Source: an uncultured bacterium (lineage in GTDB: Bacteria > Verrucomicrobiota > Kiritimatiellia > CAIKKV01 > CAITUY01). Taken from it: a DNA stretch of 57,169 nt. A program made the translations under genes and the position numbers. The notes beneath the pieces were generated by a model. It saw only the letters and a program-made list of their open reading frames with translations. It ran no database searches and was not told where the DNA came from. Shown piece after piece: positions 10,643 to 24,155 of the stretch. The stretch lies in the NCBI GenBank assembly GCA_903958395.1, contig CAJBSZ010000429.1, forward strand, positions 1-57,169, read 5' to 3'. Each line of letters begins with the position of its first letter. Position 1 is the first letter of the stretch.

Positions 10643-11117
10643 GAAAAACGAAAATACAATTGAGATTCTGGTGCGGGGTGTGTGTGTCCAGAATGGGAAA
10701 CTTCTGGTCTGCCAGAGCAAGGATGCCGCGAACACTTATCTGCCGGGTGGCCACGTTGAGTGGCGGGAAAAAGCCGCAGAAGGACTTCGGCGCGAGATCG
10801 AGGAGGAACTTGGGGTCCGGGCGGTGATCCGGGAGTTTCTCGGTGCGGTGGAGCATACCTTCATCCAGAAGGGCAAACGCCACTGCGAGATCAATCTCAT
10901 GTTTCGGATGGAAATCCAGACTTTGTCTCCGAAGAGGAAGCCCGAGGCCTGCGAGCACTGGATTTCCTTCAAATGGATTCCGCTGTCCGACCTTGGCCGG
11001 AATCATCTCGAACCCCAACCCCTGCGGAAACTGGTTCCAGCATGGGTAAAGAATCAGTCAGGCCTCTTGCGGTGGGGCAGTACGATGGATCAGGGGCGTG
11101 AAACGGATATTCTATAA
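10638..11117 (+). CDS. Nudix hydrolase
   Basis: Pyrophosphohydrolase cleaving a nucleoside diphosphate linked to another moiety. A perfect Nudix box spans G38-V60 (G-x5-E-x7-REIEEELGV). Length is 159 residues. The likely start is the GTG at 10638 inside the heptamer array, with no clear Shine-Dalgarno, so coupling to folC translation is possible. Next to folC, one candidate role is dihydroneopterin triphosphate pyrophosphatase, but this is only suggested by position. The 3' end overlaps the convergent subtilase gene by 28 bases. Confidence 0.9.
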   Translation: MKKNENTIEILVRGVCVQNGKLLVCQSKDAANTYLPGGHVEWREKAAEGLRREIEEELGVRAVIREFLGAVEHTFIQKGKRHCEINLMFRMEIQTLSPKRKPEACEHWISFKWIPLSDLGRNHLEPQPLRKLVPAWVKNQSGLLRWGSTMDQGRETDIL

Positions 11118-14100
11118 AACCGCAACGGCGCGGAGGTCGGGTCGGTGAAGGACATGACGCCGTTGGTTCCAGGGAGATTGACGCATCCGGATAGGGGTAT
11201 CCAGGTCGATCCGGAAGTCAGTTGATCATTGTACGAAACCGAGTAGTGGCGGTTCGAGAGGCCAGCCCACTGGATCACAAAACCGTTTTCATTTCCAATT
11301 GTATTGCCCGTGACGCCCAGGCGGAAAAAGCTGGAAGCTCGGGAGGCGTCGGTTCCCGCAATATCCTCGCCGTCATTCGAGACGCCGTCATGATCCCAGT
11401 CGCCCTCCGGCGACAAGGCCAGGAAGGAAACTTTGGTCGCCTGGCCGATCCAGTCCTTCCAATCCTTGGCCCAGACATAAACGGTATTAGTCTGGTTCAT
11501 GGATAGGGTGCCGAACACGCCGGTTGTTGTTGATTGCCAGACGCCGTTTGTCGTTCCGCCTCCATCCTGAAGCGACAGATAATAGCCTTTAATCCCGGTT
11601 CCACTGTCAGTGAATCCGCTCCATGAACCGGTGACTGAGCTGACTCCGATGCAATAATTTCCGTAGGGACTCAGGTTCAGGGATAGTGAAGCGCCGGCGG
11701 CAGAGGGAGGATTGGCGTCAATCCAGTAAGGTCCCTTGTATGCCGCTTGACTGAGGTTCCCAAAGTTGTCCTGCGCCCGGACCCAGGCCCAGATGTTGGT
11801 GCCATCACCCGGGGAGGGGATGGTGGCCTTGCGGTTAGTGGTGGTGCCCGAAGGATCAAACGACAGAACATTGGTTCCCGCGCCATACAGGTAGTCTTTC
11901 AAGCCAATGCCGCTTCCGTCGGTGACATGATTCCAAGATGAAAGGATCGATGGGCTTTTATTCCACCCCGCGATGGCGTGGGTGTTGATGGTGAAATTGG
12001 TGGGTGTGGGCGGCGCCTCGTTATCCACCATGAACGGTTGGCTGGTGACCCAACTGCTCCAGAAGAGACCATCCCAGGTACGGCCACGAACCAGTGTGTT
12101 CGAGGCGGCAAGCCACCCGCATCCGGAGGTCTGGGAATTCCATATCGCGCTGACGGCATTGGTGATAAGGCCCGAAGCAAGGCGTGTTATGAGATTTGAA
12201 ATTGAGGCCGATTGGGCGTTGTCAAACCTGGCGGTGCCTGCATCAGCCTGGACAGCGGTGAGCCAGAGATTGCTCCAGGGGCTACCCACAGAGGTGCTCC
12301 ATTCACAAGCCATCTGACAGGTGTCGCCATCGGCATCATGAATCTGATTATCGAGCGTTACCAGTCCGGTGCCATTGGTGGAAGTCTGGGAAGCGGTCAG
12401 CCAGGTGAGCGTCGCCGGTGAACGGACGGTCATCCGGACCGGAATGATGGCGTACGGTTTCACGGGGTCATTTCCGGAAATAAAAAGCGTGGATTGGCGT
12501 TCGCCGGTGGGAATGCCCGCACTGTCCAGGGTGACAACCGGGGCCACGCTGCTGCTGTTTGCAGGAAGCGTGAGTTGGTTGGTCGCGAGTGATAGCCAGG
12601 ATTGGGTCGGAACAACCGGTGAAATCACAATATCATCAAGATACCAGCCTTCCTCCTCGGTGTTATCGTCGGATCCAAAATGGAACCGGATAATCGCGAC
12701 CGAGCCGGTAAAGGCGGAGAGATTGAATATCGCCTGGCTCCAGGAACCGGTTCCCGCGAAGCAGGGCGTAAGATCCGGCCAAGGTGATGCGGCGTAGCCC
12801 GAGATGAGGTTCGGGTAGCCGCCGACGGGGGTAATTTGCTGGAAGGTGACCCCCAGATTGGTTGAAATTTCCACGATACCCCCGTCCCAGCAATCGTTGT
12901 AATTCCAGCCTATCCGCCAAAATTGCCCATCCAGTTCACTTTGGATCCAGTGGCGGAAGGAAAGTTGTGCCCCGGCAGGCAGAATGATGGGGGGCGAATC
13001 CAGTTTGGCGTGCATGCTGCTGCCATACGTTCGGGTGGCGGGATCCCCGCAATACCAGGCGGTGGATCCGGAGATGCTCCGGTTTGTGGAAAGAGTCCAC
13101 AGATCAACCATCCCGGAGTGGCTCCAGCCTGCGGTTCCATTCTCCACGGTATTGCTGTGTCCGCCCCACAGGATGGATAAATCGGCGCGATACTCAGCAC
13201 CCCCGCTATTGGTGGCCGACAGCGCCAGCGTGCGGGTGGTCTCGGGGAGAAGAATTGCATCCAGGCTGGTTGGCGCCAGCGTGACAAGGGGATATAGAAC
13301 CGCAAAGGTGTTGGGGCCGTTCGTGGAACTTCCTTGCAGGTCGGATGCGATGATCGAATAGACGAAGGTGTCCCCGTTGCTTCCCGGTGCAGGAAAGGCG
13401 AAACTGAAATCATTGGCGGTGCCGGGAGTCATGGCGTTGAAAGTGGTACTCCCTCCGTTACGGTTCCACATAACAATGGCGGAGGCAACGGTGTAGTTGT
13501 CGGTGATGGTGGCCGTAATGGTGAACGGAGCCGGACGGGATTGGGGATCGATCAGGGCGGAATGGTGAATAACAGGGGGGCTGGGAAATGACAAGGGATC
13601 CCGCGGGTCGGTTCGATCCCGGAATTCATCGCGGTTCACGAAGCCATCACCATCAGTATCTTCCAGGAGACTGACATTCGTGGTTCCGAAATAAAAGCAT
13701 TCCCACCAGTCGGCCAGTCCGTCGTTATTGGCATCCCGGGTTGAGGGTAGATAAAGCGCCTCTGCAAGACGGGGGACGGTCATGATAATGCCGGTAACGG
13801 GATTGACTGCAGTCTGGGTGGAGCCGGGCTGGCGTAGCCCGTCGACAGTCCATCCAATGAAGTTGTAGTTGGTCCCCGACAGTGTGGCGGTTGCCGTTGC
13901 TGTTTGGGTCGTGGTTGCGGTGCCGTCGGCATACCAGAATGTTTTATTCAGGATTGTGGAGACTTTTGAGGACTGAACAAGGGCGACCTCATGACGCCAT
14001 TGCCAGGAAAGAATTGAACTGTTTGTGAGCGTGAAGATGACGCGATTTGTGGAGCCGGTTTCAGGAATACTGCCGGTACCCGTCCAGCCGGTGCAACGCC

Positions 14101-16183
14101 ACCGCATGCCATTGGTGGGCGCGGTGGCGACGGGAGCGGACGCCTGAAACACCTTGCCTGATGGATAATTGCAGATTCCATAGGACGGGGTGACGGTGTC
14201 CATGGCAGAGGGATTTCCGGTAACGGTGAGACTGATAGGGGACACTACGGAGAAGTGGTAGGAAGCGAGGGGCGCATTGGACGGGACTTTCACCGTCTGG
14301 TTGGATCGCGAGACGGCTTGGAGCCAGTACTGGATTGTGGTGCCTTCGGGCTGCGCGGGGATGGCGGCCTCGAAACAGGTATTGCTGATGTTGTTGAGGG
14401 CGATGGCTGTAAAATTGGTGGAGCCATCCGCGTTCCAGAACAAGGTTGCCTGGTTGGTGTCATTGAGGATTGCCGGGCCGATCAGGGTGCTGACGGGATA
14501 GTCGGACCAGATGTTGAAGGTGTCTTCAAGGGGCGTATGCACGATGCGGAAGAGTGTCTTTAATGCCTTATAGGCATTGAGCCGGCCGCCGGTAACGGTT
14601 TTTTCCGACAGAGCAGGAATAGGATCGGTTCCCCGCAGGATGGCGTCCTGGATATCCTGAAGGCGGGCCTCGGGCCAGGCATTCCAGAGAAGCGTGGCGA
14701 CGCCGGCAACATGGGGGGTCGCCATGGAGGTGCCGCTCTTCATTGCATATTTGGAGCCGGGAACGGTGCTCAGGATGTCATAGCCCGGCGCACCAAGATC
14801 AACCGAGGTGGCGCCATATTGAGAAAAGGAAGCCAGTCCGTCGCTTGAAGTGGTTGCCGCTACGGCGATGACGTTCGATTCAGTATAACTGGCGGGATAG
14901 AAGGGGGTGATATCGTTATTGATTCCTGAATTGCCGGCAGCGGCCATGAAAAAAATTCCCAGTGAAGCGTTTTCCCGGATGGCATCCCGGAGGGTGGTTG
15001 TGTAATCTCCGCCGCCCCAGCTGTTGCTGGTGAGCCGGATGTTGACCCCGCGCCGCTTGAGATCGGCGACATAATGAAGCGCATCGGCGGCGTCGGAATC
15101 CGTGCCGCTTCCGCTGTCGTCCAGGAACTTGAGCGCCATGATCTTGCAGCGCCAGTTGATGCCCGCGACCCCGATGTCGTTATTGCCGATGGCGCCGATG
15201 GTGCCGGCGCAATGGGTGCCATGACTATTGCCGTCCATCGGGTTATTGTTGTCCGCTGCAAAGTTCCAGCCGCGCACATCATTTGTATAACCATTCCCGT
15301 CGTTATCCAGGCCGTTTGCGGATTCAGCGGTATTGCTCCAGATATTGCCGGCGAGGTCGGGGTGGGTGTAGTCGATGCCCGTGTCAATCACGGCGACGAC
15401 AACCTGGGTGTCGCCGGTCGCAAAATCCCATGCCTGGGGGGCAGAGATATCGGAGCCGGGGCGGTCGGCATTGTAAAGCCCCCAGAGCGAGCCGAACTGC
15501 GGGTCATTGGGAACGGTTTGTTGTGAGCGGACAATATAGTCTGGCTCGGCATAGCGGATGAGGTCTTTGTTTTCATTCAGCATGGCCAGCAGGCGGGGTA
15601 GGGCGTCCGTGGATACATCGGCGATGCTGACCAGATAACACCCGGGCATCTTCATGTTTTTCCGGATGGTTAGTCCAAGGGAGTCGACGAGGGTTTGGAG
15701 TTTCTTCATGTCGGCAACGTCCGTCAGGCGGATCATGGCATGGTCGGCAATCATGATATTTCGGGAGATGACGGCATCAGGTTGACCGGAGGGGAATTGA
15801 CGCACGACCTCCTCCACGCGCCAGAGTGGGTATTTAAAGTTTGATTTGACGATGCGGATCCGCCGGATCAGTCCCGGTGTGGCGGGGTCTGCGATTTCCT
15901 GTGACGCCAGCACCGGCATGGAGACGGTTGGGTCATCGTTTTGCGCCGACATCAGCGGGGGGGGCGTTCGGGAGGGGGAGAGAGCACCTGCCGGAATGAC
16001 GGTGGCCGGAAGGGGAGGGATGTTGGTGGGGGTCGCCGGGATCGGGATAATGGCCGGGATGACAAGGGGGGGTGAATCAGGCGTATGGGATCGGTCGGAA
16101 CGACCCATCCACCATACCCCTCCCACGAGTACGCCAACAGCCATGATGGCGCACACACCCGACAGCCGGTATCGTGTTCTCAT
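11090..16183 (-). CDS. very large secreted subtilisin-like (S8) protease with multidomain C-terminus
   Basis: 1697 residues. The N-terminal hydrophobic segment (about residues 9-26) is an export signal or anchor, followed by a Pro-rich linker, an inhibitor-like prodomain ending YAEPDYIVRSQ, and the S8 catalytic domain with D267 (VIDTGID), H321 (SHGTHC) and S486 (GTSMATPH). The long C-terminal half holds several Ser/Thr-rich beta-sandwich stretches, a TSP3-like calcium-binding segment (DANNDGLADWWE, then DTDGDGFVNRDE), jelly-roll/CUB-like and Ig-like repeats, and a last GDWDHDGVSNDGE calcium motif before a beta-rich tail typical of secreted Kiritimatiellota/Verrucomicrobia proteins. GGGGG lies just before the ATG. 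Probably digests extracellular protein; the specific substrate is unknown. Confidence 0.92.
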   Translation of the reverse strand: MRTRYRLSGVCAIMAVGVLVGGVWWMGRSDRSHTPDSPPLVIPAIIPIPATPTNIPPLPATVIPAGALSPSRTPPPLMSAQNDDPTVSMPVLASQEIADPATPGLIRRIRIVKSNFKYPLWRVEEVVRQFPSGQPDAVISRNIMIADHAMIRLTDVADMKKLQTLVDSLGLTIRKNMKMPGCYLVSIADVSTDALPRLLAMLNENKDLIRYAEPDYIVRSQQTVPNDPQFGSLWGLYNADRPGSDISAPQAWDFATGDTQVVVAVIDTGIDYTHPDLAGNIWSNTAESANGLDNDGNGYTNDVRGWNFAADNNNPMDGNSHGTHCAGTIGAIGNNDIGVAGINWRCKIMALKFLDDSGSGTDSDAADALHYVADLKRRGVNIRLTSNSWGGGDYTTTLRDAIRENASLGIFFMAAAGNSGINNDITPFYPASYTESNVIAVAATTSSDGLASFSQYGATSVDLGAPGYDILSTVPGSKYAMKSGTSMATPHVAGVATLLWNAWPEARLQDIQDAILRGTDPIPALSEKTVTGGRLNAYKALKTLFRIVHTPLEDTFNIWSDYPVSTLIGPAILNDTNQATLFWNADGSTNFTAIALNNISNTCFEAAIPAQPEGTTIQYWLQAVSRSNQTVKVPSNAPLASYHFSVVSPISLTVTGNPSAMDTVTPSYGICNYPSGKVFQASAPVATAPTNGMRWRCTGWTGTGSIPETGSTNRVIFTLTNSSILSWQWRHEVALVQSSKVSTILNKTFWYADGTATTTQTATATATLSGTNYNFIGWTVDGLRQPGSTQTAVNPVTGIIMTVPRLAEALYLPSTRDANNDGLADWWECFYFGTTNVSLLEDTDGDGFVNRDEFRDRTDPRDPLSFPSPPVIHHSALIDPQSRPAPFTITATITDNYTVASAIVMWNRNGGSTTFNAMTPGTANDFSFAFPAPGSNGDTFVYSIIASDLQGSSTNGPNTFAVLYPLVTLAPTSLDAILLPETTRTLALSATNSGGAEYRADLSILWGGHSNTVENGTAGWSHSGMVDLWTLSTNRSISGSTAWYCGDPATRTYGSSMHAKLDSPPIILPAGAQLSFRHWIQSELDGQFWRIGWNYNDCWDGGIVEISTNLGVTFQQITPVGGYPNLISGYAASPWPDLTPCFAGTGSWSQAIFNLSAFTGSVAIIRFHFGSDDNTEEEGWYLDDIVISPVVPTQSWLSLATNQLTLPANSSSVAPVVTLDSAGIPTGERQSTLFISGNDPVKPYAIIPVRMTVRSPATLTWLTASQTSTNGTGLVTLDNQIHDADGDTCQMACEWSTSVGSPWSNLWLTAVQADAGTARFDNAQSASISNLITRLASGLITNAVSAIWNSQTSGCGWLAASNTLVRGRTWDGLFWSSWVTSQPFMVDNEAPPTPTNFTINTHAIAGWNKSPSILSSWNHVTDGSGIGLKDYLYGAGTNVLSFDPSGTTTNRKATIPSPGDGTNIWAWVRAQDNFGNLSQAAYKGPYWIDANPPSAAGASLSLNLSPYGNYCIGVSSVTGSWSGFTDSGTGIKGYYLSLQDGGGTTNGVWQSTTTGVFGTLSMNQTNTVYVWAKDWKDWIGQATKVSFLALSPEGDWDHDGVSNDGEDIAGTDASRASSFFRLGVTGNTIGNENGFVIQWAGLSNRHYSVSYNDQLTSGSTWIPLSGCVNLPGTNGVMSFTDPTSAPLRFYRISVSRP

Positions 16184-16250: not shown

Positions 16251-16754
16251 CTACTTCAGCCCGCGTTTGACCATCAGGACCATGTCTTCCTTGAGGTTCT
16301 GGAGGTCTTCCTCGTGCATCACCTCATCTTGGAGGATCTGGAGGACCATGTTGTAGGTGACGGGGTCGCGGTCCCGGCTGAACTTCAGCAGTTCGTTGTA
16401 GTGCTTGATCGCGCACTGTTCGCCGCTGATGTTCTGGTCGAGGATGACCTTGACGTAGGGATCCTTGGGGGCGTCGTAGCCGCAATTGGTCAGCTTCAGC
16501 CAGACATCGGGGCCGAGGGCCGGGGTGCCGCCCAACTGGATGATCCGGTCGGCATCCATTCCCGCATGGCGGAGTTCATCCGCAGCGTGCTGGGTCAGTT
16601 CCGCCATGACGGAGTCTTTCATGGGGCCCTTCACCAATTTGGCTCCCAGCCAGTACTGGTAGTAAGCAAGCCACTCGTCACAGTACAGCTTGTTCAGCAT
16701 GGCGATGATCTTATCTGCATCCTTGCCCACGATCTGTCTTCCTGCAGTACCCAT
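16251..16754 (-). CDS. ferritin-like diiron protein (Dps/bacterioferritin-like)
   Basis: 167 residues forming a four-helix ferritin-like fold. The expected diiron ligands are visible: E27, E60 with H63 (ELRH), E112, and E144 with H147 (EVMHE). There is no axial Met pattern that clearly proves haem binding, so DpsL-like or bacterioferritin-like iron storage or peroxide detoxification are both possible. It starts 15 bases after the stop of the interrupted SPFH gene and is the last gene of a three-gene operon with two SPFH proteins, an association that suggests a shared stress or membrane role. No oligomerisation state can be read from sequence. Confidence 0.88.
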   Translation of the reverse strand: MGTAGRQIVGKDADKIIAMLNKLYCDEWLAYYQYWLGAKLVKGPMKDSVMAELTQHAADELRHAGMDADRIIQLGGTPALGPDVWLKLTNCGYDAPKDPYVKVILDQNISGEQCAIKHYNELLKFSRDRDPVTYNMVLQILQDEVMHEEDLQNLKEDMVLMVKRGLK

Positions 16755-16769
16755 AACGACCTCCTTATG

Positions 16770-18446
16770 TTATTTCTTTTGTTTCATCAAAGTGGCGCCA
16801 CCGAGTTCGCCGAGGGTGGCCTTCTCGAGGTCGGTCCAGAGAGTGCCCTCGCCGGCATGGAGGATATTGATCCGGAGATCGGAGCGGAGGGATCCGGCGA
16901 ATTCCCACATGCTGAAGGCGATGGGGTCACCGAAGGCCAGGGTTTTCATCTGGGCGCCGCGGGCGCGTTCGTTCTCCACCAGTTTCATTGAATCGGCGGC
17001 CGCTTTTCCCAGGGTACGCGTCTTGTCGGCCCGGACTTCAGCGGAGTTTTTGTCGATCAGCGCAATTTGCTTGATCGTTCCCGCCTGGATTTCCGCCACC
17101 TGTTTTTCCTGGTCGGCTTTGATTTCCGCCTTCAACTTCTGGGTTTCCTGGGCAACCTGGGCGCGGCGCTGATCAATCAGGGACATGCCGGTGTTGAGGT
17201 CGGCCTGTTTCCGGGCCGTGTTCTGGCGCTCAATGTTGGTCAGGTCCTGCTCTGTGGCAATGCTGGCTTTCTGAATGGGATCCAGGATTTGCAGGGGGAC
17301 ATCCACATGCCGGATGAGCGCATTGTGGGTGATGATCTTTTTCTCAGCCATGGTTTTCGATAGCGCCTCAGTCATATCGGTCTGGAATTTCTCGCGGCCC
17401 TCGCCGACGATGAAATCCTTCGCGCGGTATTCCGAGCCCTTATTGCGGGTGATGGATAGAATCTGCGGCATGATGATCTTGTCCACCACGGCGGGGAGAT
17501 CCCCGTAGCTGCGGTATAGCCAGGCGATGTTCTCGGGGAGCAGTTCGAACTAGACCGTCATGTCGAGACTGATCAGGAATCCGTCACGGGACGGGAAGGT
17601 GACGTACTCGTTCAGCACATGGACGCTGTCGCTGGAGCGTTGGGGAGCGACGGGTTTTTTTGCCGCCGGCATGGCGGTTGCCCGTTGCGCCATTTCCATG
17701 TCCGCCTGTTCGTAATAATCCCGGCGCTTGGCCTGCTGTTGCTTCAGCATATTGTCCTGCAGAGCATCCATGGCCACGTTTTGGACGGCGATCTGTCCCT
17801 TGGTGATCACGGCACTGCCCTCGCGTCCGAGCAGGGAAACCTGGTTGAGGCCGATCTCCAGGACATTGATCTGGAATTCCTTCGGGTTCACATAATACAG
17901 GCCGGGCTGGAGAATATCCTCACGCACTCCTTTTTCGCCGGGCTTGGCGAAGGCGCCTTCCGGTGCCTGTCTTCCTGAGAGCGAGGTGATGAGTCCGACA
18001 TACCCGATGGGGATCACGACGGCGTCCTCGACCTTGACCTCATAGCCGACGGGGTTCAGTCGGTATTTTCCGGGGCCGAGCACACGCCGGGCGATACCCT
18101 TCTGCCCTTCGTTGGCCAAAAATTCACCCTGGGGCAGATCGGCACCCACCTTGGCGGTCACCACCCCGATTTTTCCGGGAGGGATGTTGATGACGGGCAT
18201 GATCTGGATGTTGTACTCATAGGGATTCCGGAAATGCCGGCCTTCCCCCAGGACCTGTTCCTGGATTCCCATCTGTCCCTCCTGGGCGAGGATCTGGCCG
18301 GGTTTCAAGGCGGCTCCGGTTTTGGCGGTAATCACGGCCATCTGGTCGGGATAGACATAAAACCGGCAGAAGCCCCATTCCCAGACGAAGATACTGAAAA
18401 GGACAAATGCGATGGCGGCAGCAATGATGGATTTAAGCGAAGTCAT
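16770..18446 (-). pseudogene. SPFH/band-7 protein with three N-terminal repeats, interrupted by an in-frame TAG
   Basis: The reading frame is continuous from the ATG at 18446 to the stop at 16770 (558 sense codons) except for one TAG at 17550-17552. Before the stop: an N-terminal membrane helix, three ~57-residue repeats (G-V-I/V-TA-x-G ... KGI ... L-x-PG-x-Y-x-NP) and the beginning of the SPFH domain ending DGFLISLDMTV. After the stop the frame resumes with FELLPENIAWLYRSYG, the rest of SPFH, a long Gln/Lys/Ala-rich coiled coil and a conserved tail. The paralogue upstream has Glu at the matching place (GTIEFALQGE), so a single GAG-to-TAG change explains it. A GTG at 17489 could start the second half but lacks a ribosome site. 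Nonsense mutation, sequencing error or suppression are all possible. Confidence 0.85.
17550..17552 (-). other. in-frame amber codon inside the SPFH gene
   Basis: TAG between codons for Val (GTC) and Phe (TTC), followed by T. Frame, similarity and coiled-coil features are preserved on both sides. Several other genes here (ispD, hydE, the subtilase at 33761) end naturally in TAG, so genome-wide amber reassignment is unlikely. Confidence 0.9.
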
Positions 18447-19981
18447 TATTTCACCTCCTTGCGGGTCTGGGGAAGATAGGGAAGAAAAAGAGTGCCGAGC
18501 CCGTCGCCTTGATCGGAGCTCATGATGGACTCGATGCGCGGCCCCACTTTCTTATAGAAGGTGTATCGGGCGTAATTCAGTCCGTTGCTGAAGGCTTGAA
18601 CCTGACTGGAAAGTACAGCGGCTTCGGCGAGGTTTTGCATGGTGACCACGTCGGCTTCGGCCTGAGCCTTGAACATGACGGACTTGGCCTGGGCGATGGC
18701 GGCTTCATTCTCAATTCGGGCCACTTCCAGTTCGCGGTTGGCCTGGACCACCCGCACGGCCTGTTCCTGCTGGGCGGCAATGACCGCCTGGATGCGGATG
18801 GTATCGGCTTCCACCTTCTCGCCGCTCTGACGGGCCAGCATCTCCTGCTTGACCAGTTCGGCCTTGGACTTGGCCTGTCCGATTTCCATGTCGTATTTCT
18901 TGCTTTCCTGAACGGCGACTTCGCGGTCACGGATGATGCTGGAGATTTCCTCGGGCGGACTGATGTTGCGGATCAGAACGGATCGGATGGAAACGCCCCA
19001 TTTTTCACAGGTGCTCCGCAGGTGGAGTTCGAGGTCTTTTTGAAACTTCTGGCGGGTTTCTCCCACAATGAAGGTGGTGGCGGGGTGTTTGCTTCCCTCA
19101 ATGCGGCTGAAGCCGCGGGCACGTGGCAGGATGACCTTCTTGATGATGTCATTCATATCGCCCACGCGGTGGGTGAGGAGGGCGGCTTGTTCGCCCTGCA
19201 ACGCAAACTCAATGGTGCCCTCGACCATGACGCTGAATCCGTCCATGGTGAGGAAGTTGATCGCATCCAGCCCGCTCATCTCAAACCGCTGGCTCTGGAG
19301 GTTGACTTCCGCGACGCTGACCAGGTAGGGGTTGAGGTAATAGGTGCCTGAATCCAGAACGGTTGGCAGCACGCCCTTCATGGAGCTTCCCACTAGGAAC
19401 CCGTTCGGCTTGTTAGAGGTGATTCCACTGAGCACATCAGCCCCCGTTAGCGAGGTCACGACGCCCACAAAGCCGGGGCGGATGGTGATGGCGTCATACA
19501 AATCCACCCGGAAGGCGTAGGGGTTGATGCGGATTTTTCCCGGACTGAGAACATCGGCCAGGATTCCTTTCTGGCCGGGACCGGCGATGATCTGGTTGGG
19601 GGGGAGATCCTGTCCGTACAGGCGGGTGAGAACGCCCAGTTTGCCGGCCGGGATATCGGTGATTTTATCCATTCGCCAATCCCAGAAAAAGGGATTCCGG
19701 AAATAGCGTCCTTCCGCCAGGACTTCCAGTTGGATGCCCTTTTGATCAGGGGTCTCGGCGATCAACTGACCTGAAGGAAGATCTTTTCCGGTTTTGGCGA
19801 TCAGGATGGCAATATGACCGCTGTCGGGCTCGATCCGGCAGAAGAACCAGATGAAGAGGGGAATGAAGAGCAGGATTCCCATTCCGAAGAGCGGCCAGAA
19901 CGCTGCCCGGAGCATGGAGAACGGGCGGGGAACCGGGGGCGGAGACCCAAAGGCGTTGTCAACACGGGTAATTCGATTCAT
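18446..19981 (-). CDS. SPFH/band-7 (flotillin-like) protein with three N-terminal beta repeats
   Basis: 511 residues. A single membrane helix near residues 28-48 follows a short Pro-rich N-terminus. Three tandem ~57-residue repeats come next (for example KLGVLTRLYG then GQKGILADVLSPG then INPYAF), then an SPFH domain, then an Ala/Glu/Gln-rich coiled coil (about residues 360-460) and a tail. SPFH proteins oligomerise into membrane-attached scaffolds. The start at 19981 has GAGGT six bases upstream, and the stop overlaps the next ATG (TAATG) with GGAGGTGA just before it, so the paralogue is translationally coupled. Specific function unknown; the operon with a ferritin-like gene suggests envelope or redox stress. 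Confidence 0.88.
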   Translation of the reverse strand: MNRITRVDNAFGSPPPVPRPFSMLRAAFWPLFGMGILLFIPLFIWFFCRIEPDSGHIAILIAKTGKDLPSGQLIAETPDQKGIQLEVLAEGRYFRNPFFWDWRMDKITDIPAGKLGVLTRLYGQDLPPNQIIAGPGQKGILADVLSPGKIRINPYAFRVDLYDAITIRPGFVGVVTSLTGADVLSGITSNKPNGFLVGSSMKGVLPTVLDSGTYYLNPYLVSVAEVNLQSQRFEMSGLDAINFLTMDGFSVMVEGTIEFALQGEQAALLTHRVGDMNDIIKKVILPRARGFSRIEGSKHPATTFIVGETRQKFQKDLELHLRSTCEKWGVSIRSVLIRNISPPEEISSIIRDREVAVQESKKYDMEIGQAKSKAELVKQEMLARQSGEKVEADTIRIQAVIAAQQEQAVRVVQANRELEVARIENEAAIAQAKSVMFKAQAEADVVTMQNLAEAAVLSSQVQAFSNGLNYARYTFYKKVGPRIESIMSSDQGDGLGTLFLPYLPQTRKEVK

Positions 19982-23064: not shown

Positions 23065-23100
23065 TTTATCATAATCTTAATCGTAATCATAATCTTAATC
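23065..23100 (+). repeat. hexamer tandem array between divergent genes
   Basis: Six consecutive 6-base units of the form NTWATC/NTAATC: TTTATC, ATAATC, TTAATC, GTAATC, ATAATC, TTAATC. The array fills most of the 54-base gap between the PP-loop ATPase start (minus) and the phosphodiesterase start (plus), where promoter elements would be expected. Confidence 0.85.
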
Positions 23101-23107
23101 CCCTACG

Positions 23108-24118
23108 ATGCCACGCATGAGAATTACCCTTATAGTTGCTTTCTGGGTTTATGGCTGCCTTATCGCCAGAGGTGCGGAGTATGTCATCGCCGTGAGTGTT
23201 GACGGCCTGGGCTCGACGTATCTGCAAACGCTGGTCGACGCCGGGCGGCTTCCTCATTTCAAGCAATTGGAAGTGGAATCTGCGGGGACAACCAATGCCC
23301 GAGCCGATTTCAACATCACCGTTACGCTTCCGAATCATACCAGCATGATTACCAGCCGCCGGATCACGGAGCCCGAGGGTCATAACTGGTCCAGTAATAC
23401 AGATCCAGCCAAGGGGGTGACGATTCATTCCAACAAGGGAGTTTATGTTCCCAGTGTTTTTGATGTCGTTCATGATCACGGCCTGCGCACCGGAGTGTGG
23501 GCCACCAAAACCAAGTTTGCTTTGTTTAAGGTTTCCTATGACGACCTTCACGGTGCACCGGACAAGACCGGCCCCGATAACGGTCGCAATAAAGTGGATT
23601 ACTTTGTGTGTGCGAAATCCCCCGTGCTGACGGACAGTGTGATCAGCATGATGACGACCCAGCCCTGCCACTTCGCCTTCGTGCATTTTGGCGATGGGGA
23701 TGCCGCAGGTCACACCCATGGATGGGGGAGCGAACCGTACAACGCGGCTCTGATCACGATAGACGGCTATCTTGGCCGTATTATGGATCTGATCGCCACC
23801 AACCCCGTCTTGAAGGGAAGAACCGACTTGATTGTCACGGCTGATCATGGTGGGGCGGGGAAGGATCACTCGGATGCCACCAAGCCCATTGATTACACGA
23901 TCCCTTTCTATGTGTGGGGCACAGGTATTACCCGGGGCGACCTGTATGCGCTGAATACTGGCACCCGAAAAGAACCCGGAACAGGCCGGCCTGATTATTC
24001 GGAGCTGAACCCGCCTATACGGAATGGCGATGTCGGCAATCTGGCGCTTTCCCTTCTCGGGCTCCCTTCGATTCCGGGGTCCACGATTGACGTCAAACAG
24101 GATCTCAAGGTGAAGTGA
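23108..24118 (+). CDS. secreted type I phosphodiesterase / nucleotide pyrophosphatase (alkaline-phosphatase fold)
   Basis: 336 residues with an N-terminal signal peptide (about residues 4-22, cut after RGA). The alkaline-phosphatase superfamily metal sites are visible: VSVDGLG near residue 30, the nucleophile region TLPNHTSM, HFGDGDAAGHTHGW, and TADHGGAGKDH. The order matches NPP/autotaxin-type phosphodiesterases that cleave phosphodiester or phosphate esters outside the cell. Possible starts are 23108 and 23117. It is monocistronic and convergent with the ABC transporter genes. Confidence 0.88.
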   Translation: MPRMRITLIVAFWVYGCLIARGAEYVIAVSVDGLGSTYLQTLVDAGRLPHFKQLEVESAGTTNARADFNITVTLPNHTSMITSRRITEPEGHNWSSNTDPAKGVTIHSNKGVYVPSVFDVVHDHGLRTGVWATKTKFALFKVSYDDLHGAPDKTGPDNGRNKVDYFVCAKSPVLTDSVISMMTTQPCHFAFVHFGDGDAAGHTHGWGSEPYNAALITIDGYLGRIMDLIATNPVLKGRTDLIVTADHGGAGKDHSDATKPIDYTIPFYVWGTGITRGDLYALNTGTRKEPGTGRPDYSELNPPIRNGDVGNLALSLLGLPSIPGSTIDVKQDLKVK

Positions 24119-24135
24119 ATTTATTGAAAAGCCCA

Positions 24136-24155
24136 TTGCAAAAGCGTTTTTGCAA
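24136..24155. terminator. bidirectional hairpin between convergent genes
   Basis: TTGCAAAA and TTTTGCAA form a perfect 8-base-pair stem with a GCGT loop. It lies 18 bases after the phosphodiesterase stop and 5 bases after the oppF stop. The stem is AT-rich with A/T flanks, so termination strength may be low. Confidence 0.45.

What the first reader, a model, noticed from the sequence alone, without database searches (positions are those of the whole stretch)
17550..17552. One in-frame TAG splits the second SPFH gene
Frame and homology are intact on both sides; the paralogue has Glu at this place, so a single GAG-to-TAG change explains it. The rest of the gene (coiled coil, tail) looks uneroded. 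Other genes end in TAG, so global recoding is unlikely. It could be a recent nonsense mutation, an assembly or sequencing error, or a regulated read-through yielding a short triple-repeat protein and a long SPFH form.
Basis: seen in the sequence. Interest (0 to 1): 0.6.

Follow-up and report, generated by a model that had tools for sequence, protein, structure and literature searches.

The report
One-base nonsense change in SPFH gene
A well-conserved bacterial membrane-scaffold (SPFH) gene is cut in two by one stop codon that none of 31 compared relatives has, so it is most likely a very recent mutation or a single wrong base in the assembly, not a new kind of gene expression.

Summary
Window 17552-17550 on the minus strand reads TAG, codon 299 of an otherwise open 558-codon frame (16770-18446) for the second of two tandem SPFH proteins. 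All 31 distinct orthologues compared codon by codon have Glu (GAG or GAA) there and no stop. The two nearest species (97-98% amino-acid identity) have GAG. The frame after the TAG evolves under the same strong constraint as the frame before it. TAG is an ordinary stop here: RF1 is present, 6 of 33 window genes end in TAG, and 88 domain matches elsewhere in the genome contain no internal stop. None of 41 tRNAs has a CUA anticodon, though the tRNA set is incomplete. There is no conserved or structured sequence at the site and no ribosome-binding site for a restart. The cut falls inside a predicted beta-strand of the SPFH domain. The genome holds no second copy and no other SPFH gene. Best reading: one G-to-T change unique to this genome, either a very recent nonsense mutation or a consensus-base error. 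Only the reads can separate these. Programmed read-through is unlikely. A side lead is that this SPFH family, with three N-terminal repeats, weakly resembles major vault protein in fold.

The parts
17550..17552 (-). In-frame TAG, codon 299 of the second SPFH gene
   Evidence: Glu codon in all 31 distinct orthologues
17553..18446 (-). 5' part of SPFH2 (298 codons): transmembrane helix, three repeats, linker helix, first strands of the SPFH domain
   Evidence: predicted structure of an intact orthologue
18369..18437 (-). Predicted N-terminal transmembrane helix, residues 4-26
17847..18362 (-). Three tandem repeats of about 55 residues (residues 29-200), not covered by a Pfam or NCBIfam model of their own
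16770..17549 (-). 3' part of SPFH2 (259 codons + TAA): rest of the SPFH domain, coiled coil, tail; under purifying selection
   Evidence: Pfam Band_7 36.5 bits; dN/dS about 0.04-0.05 against the two closest species
18446..19981 (-). Intact paralogue SPFH1 (511 aa), overlapping the SPFH2 start by one base (TAATG)
16251..16754 (-). Ferritin/Dps-like gene downstream; ends in TAG, and its orthologues in both close relatives also end in TAG

Best explanation
A real, very recent nonsense mutation. One base changed (Glu codon GAG to TAG) in the lineage or population sampled by this metagenome-assembled genome. TAG is read as stop, so translation of the second SPFH protein ends at residue 298, inside the SPFH domain. 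The fragment loses the rest of the domain and the coiled coil that SPFH proteins use to form rings, and is probably non-functional. The sequence after the stop still looks intact because too little time has passed for decay. Shown: the TAG, its absence from all relatives, intact constraint, TAG used as stop elsewhere. Inferred: that the base is real, and that the product is non-functional.
For: Glu in all 31 distinct orthologues, GAG in the two closest; one-step change. Nonsynonymous/synonymous changes on the window branch are 2/16 before and 3/14 after the site (Fisher p = 0.66), with dN/dS about 0.04-0.05 on both sides. If decay after the stop were neutral, the stop would have to be younger than roughly a quarter of the branch since the split from the two closest species (P = 0.003 at one quarter). 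RF1 present; 6 of 33 genes end in TAG; no CUA tRNA found. No usable restart: the first GTG/ATG codons after the stop lack a Shine-Dalgarno sequence, whereas SPFH2 and the ferritin-like gene both have AGGAGGT.
Against: The two SPFH genes are the only Band 7 genes found in the genome, so loss would leave no backup; all five other genomes of the genus keep the gene intact (one copy is cut by a contig end). It is the only broken gene found among those checked, which fits an isolated wrong base equally well. Reads were not available.
Confidence: 0.55

Rival explanations
1. Consensus-base or sequencing error: the organism has an ordinary Glu codon and makes the full SPFH2 protein; the TAG exists only in the assembly.
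For: The assembly is a draft of 559 contigs. Everything but one base is intact and under constraint, the gene is the only partner of SPFH1 in the genome and is never broken among the listed relatives. A lone substitution with nothing else wrong is what an isolated error would look like.
Against: No other broken gene was found in about 12,000 codons of the window or in 88 domain matches elsewhere, so the assembly is not error-rich. The site is not in a homopolymer.
Confidence: 0.37
2. Programmed read-through or suppression: the TAG is a regulated switch between a short triple-repeat protein and the full SPFH protein.
For: The frame is open and constrained on both sides, and the three repeats end before the stop.
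Against: No relative has the stop. No suppressor tRNA among 41, RF1 present. No RNA structure around the stop (z 0.2 and 0.3) and no synonymous constraint there. The cut lies inside predicted strand 291-302 of the SPFH domain; the fragment folded alone is predicted with lower confidence (mean pLDDT 50, and about 26 over residues 271-298 against 75-79 in the intact protein).
Confidence: 0.03
3. Gene split into two working genes: a short N-terminal protein and a separately started C-terminal SPFH/coiled-coil protein.
For: The downstream part alone still matches Band_7 and has an open frame from GTG 17489 (239 aa).
Against: No Shine-Dalgarno sequence before any of the first three start-like codons after the stop. 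The downstream piece starts inside the SPFH fold and would lack the membrane anchor. No relative is split at this site.
Confidence: 0.03
4. Genome-wide or partial recoding of TAG as a sense codon (including pyrrolysine).
For: Only that the frame continues.
Against: RF1 present, ordinary TAG stops in 6 of 33 window genes including the neighbouring ferritin-like gene, no CUA tRNA found, no internal TAG in 88 domain matches.
Confidence: 0.01

Closest known systems
Recent nonsense (point-mutation) pseudogenes in bacterial genomes
   Same: One in-frame stop in a gene that is intact in all relatives
   Different: No decay yet, and an assembly error cannot be excluded
SPFH / Band 7 superfamily (HflK/HflC, QmcA, prohibitin, flotillin)
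   Same: N-terminal membrane helix, SPFH domain, coiled coil; a tandem pair of genes as for HflK/HflC; Band_7 match and fold matches to prohibitin, HflK/C, QmcA
   Different: Three extra N-terminal repeats of about 55 residues; HflK equivalog model far below its cut-off for SPFH1 and absent for SPFH2
Major vault protein (eukaryotic vault particle)
   Same: Order of parts: N-terminal beta repeats, SPFH-like shoulder, long helix; best Foldseek matches to an intact orthologue's model are vault chains, E 5e-10
   Different: Three repeats, a membrane anchor, no vault-repeat match by sequence; low TM scores (0.22/0.17) on a medium-confidence model (mean pLDDT 61)

Membership tests
SPFH / Band 7 family (PF01145) | Pfam Band_7 match above gathering score | tested here: met
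   36.5 bits for the part after the TAG alone, 85.5 for SPFH1 (cut-off 23.6); all 10 orthologues in A1 match
HflK/HflC | NCBIfam HflK equivalog above cut-off | tested here: not met
   SPFH1 21.8 bits against 159.4; SPFH2 and its orthologue no match
Major vault protein | Vault repeats recognised by sequence | tested here: not met
   No vault family among Pfam matches up to E = 5 in ten orthologues
Major vault protein | Overall fold: repeats + shoulder + cap helix | tested here: inconclusive
   Top Foldseek matches are vault chains (E 5e-10) but TM scores are low and model confidence is moderate
Programmed stop-codon read-through gene | Stop conserved in orthologues with coding constraint after it | tested here: not met
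   Constraint yes, stop conserved in 0 of 31 distinct orthologues
Programmed stop-codon read-through gene | Stimulatory RNA structure or constrained nucleotides after the stop | tested here: not met
   Fold z-scores 0.17 and 0.33; 7 of 20 codons vary among three close species at the site
Programmed stop-codon read-through gene | Suppressor tRNA for TAG | tested here: inconclusive
   None among 41 tRNAs, but the tRNA set is incomplete (for example no tRNA-Phe or tRNA-Ile seen)
Nonsense pseudogene | Internal stop absent from orthologues | tested here: met
Nonsense pseudogene | Relaxed selection after the disabling change | tested here: not met
   dN/dS about 0.04-0.05 after the stop; expected if very recent or an error
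Nonsense pseudogene | Base confirmed by reads | not testable with these tools
   No read data held

The most novel reading that the evidence does not exclude
The TAG is real and partly read through in this one species, giving a short membrane-anchored triple-repeat form and a little full-length SPFH2 that caps or regulates SPFH rings; such a switch would have to have arisen since the split from its closest relatives.
Probability: 0.03. Interest if true: 0.4.

Novelty: already known. Interest (0 to 1): 0.12.

Why it matters
As a finding it matters little: a lone nonsense change or base error in one draft genome. It is a caution that a single assembly can show an apparent gene split, and it shows that relatives settle most of the question quickly. 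The SPFH family itself (tandem pair, three N-terminal repeats, weak vault-like fold, found in 129 of 346 genomes of the class searched) would be the more useful target.

Tried and rejected
Read-through signals: RNA folding, synonymous constraint, suppressor tRNAs: nothing. Recoding: RF1 search, TAG stops in the window, internal stops in 88 domain matches: rejected. Restart of the downstream half: no ribosome-binding site. Second allele or backup SPFH gene in the bin: none. Profile search of solved structures by sequence gave no relevant match. The model of the short form was too poor to search with. Literature searches gave SPFH background only.

Full report
What is there. On the minus strand the frame 18446-16770 encodes a 558-residue SPFH protein (here SPFH2) interrupted once, at codon 299, by TAG at 17552-17550. 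It lies directly after the intact paralogue SPFH1 (18446-19981), overlapping by one base, and before a ferritin/Dps-like gene (16251-16754). The window is one whole contig of a draft genome of 5.2 Mb in 559 contigs, 93% complete. Named relatives are MAGs labelled Kiritimatiellales, Kiritimatiellaeota, Verrucomicrobia, Lentisphaerae and PVC group, so the organism is probably a Kiritimatiellia-type member of that group (inference).

Orthologues. Thirty-one distinct orthologues from the same class and slightly beyond were aligned codon by codon. All have GAG or GAA at position 299, and none has a stop there or anywhere inside the gene. Glu299 is invariant in a separate alignment of ten. The two nearest species, with 97 and 98% amino-acid and 93-94% nucleotide identity, have GAG. 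A wider search found the gene in 129 of 346 genomes of the class; among the matches listed (the list was truncated) only the window's has an internal stop. The TAG is therefore private to this genome.

Constraint. Using the two closest species to polarise changes, the window branch carries 2 nonsynonymous and 16 synonymous changes before the TAG and 3 and 14 after it. Pairwise dN/dS on either side is about 0.04-0.05, like that between the two intact relatives. If the downstream part had been free to decay, the stop would have to be younger than roughly a quarter of that branch.

Is TAG a stop here? RF1 is present above its curated cut-off. Six of 33 window genes end in TAG, among them the next gene, whose orthologues in both close relatives also end in TAG. 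Of 45 sulfatase and 43 ABC-domain matches in the genome, none has an internal stop. All 41 tRNAs found were typed; none has a CUA anticodon, although the set is not complete. Recoding is rejected, and a suppressor is not supported.

Read-through or restart? The RNA around the stop folds no better than shuffles (z 0.17 and 0.33). Codons around the site vary among the three close species as they do elsewhere in the gene. The first start-like codons after the stop have no Shine-Dalgarno sequence, while SPFH2 and the ferritin-like gene both have AGGAGGT. In the model of an intact orthologue, residue 299 is in a beta-strand (291-302) of the SPFH domain; the truncated half folded alone is predicted with lower confidence. 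The stop is not at a domain boundary, so a purposeful short form is unlikely. Both models are of limited quality (mean pLDDT 61 and 50), so this last point is weak.

Error or real mutation? The assembly shows no other broken gene in the roughly 12,000 codons of the window compared with close relatives, so it is not error-rich; but a single wrong base cannot be excluded without reads. SPFH1 and SPFH2 are the only Band 7 genes found in the genome and no second copy of the locus is present, which makes a fixed loss somewhat surprising. I put a real, very recent nonsense mutation at 0.55 and an error at 0.37; this split is judgement. One caveat: gene coordinates were chosen from the ORF list by eye, one of the 33 (23087-24136, minus) is probably the wrong strand, and stops seen in relatives of two genes (29240 and 44812) concern the region around the start codon (seen directly only for 44812).

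Side lead. SPFH2 and SPFH1 carry N-terminal repeats of about 55 residues (three in SPFH2) that no Pfam or NCBIfam model covers on its own. Foldseek's best matches to the intact orthologue's model are major vault protein chains, followed by prohibitin, erlin, HflK/C and flotillin. The TM scores are low and no vault repeat is found by sequence, so this is resemblance, not membership. PMC12624060 describes the vault and HflK/C as SPFH cages; PMC2636767 classifies prokaryotic SPFH proteins into 12 subfamilies by sequence and operon; I did not place this pair in that scheme.

Verdict.

Noticed in passing
window 17847-18362 (-) and the matching part of SPFH1, 18446-19981 (-): SPFH proteins with N-terminal repeats of about 55 residues before the SPFH domain; the model of an intact orthologue matches major vault protein best. 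A tandem pair found across the class; possibly a membrane-anchored vault-like cage.
   Followed up: partly
window 16251-16754 (-): A ferritin/Dps-like gene follows the SPFH pair in the window and the two closest species, but not in eight more distant loci read; in other genomes of the genus its matches lie on other contigs.
   Followed up: partly
window 23068-23104: Short AT-rich intergenic element (TAATCATAATCTTAATC-like) with many scattered matches in both orientations in all five other genomes of the genus.
   Followed up: no
genome G000 (whole): The genome is 5.2 Mb, while the two nearest species would be about 2.4 and 3.2 Mb after correction for completeness; a large difference between close relatives, or a difference in binning.
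   Followed up: no
window 11090-16183 (-): A large (1697 aa) gene with subtilisin-like protease motifs directly after the ferritin-like gene, conserved in both close relatives at 81-88% identity, lower than its neighbours at 97-100%.
   Followed up: no
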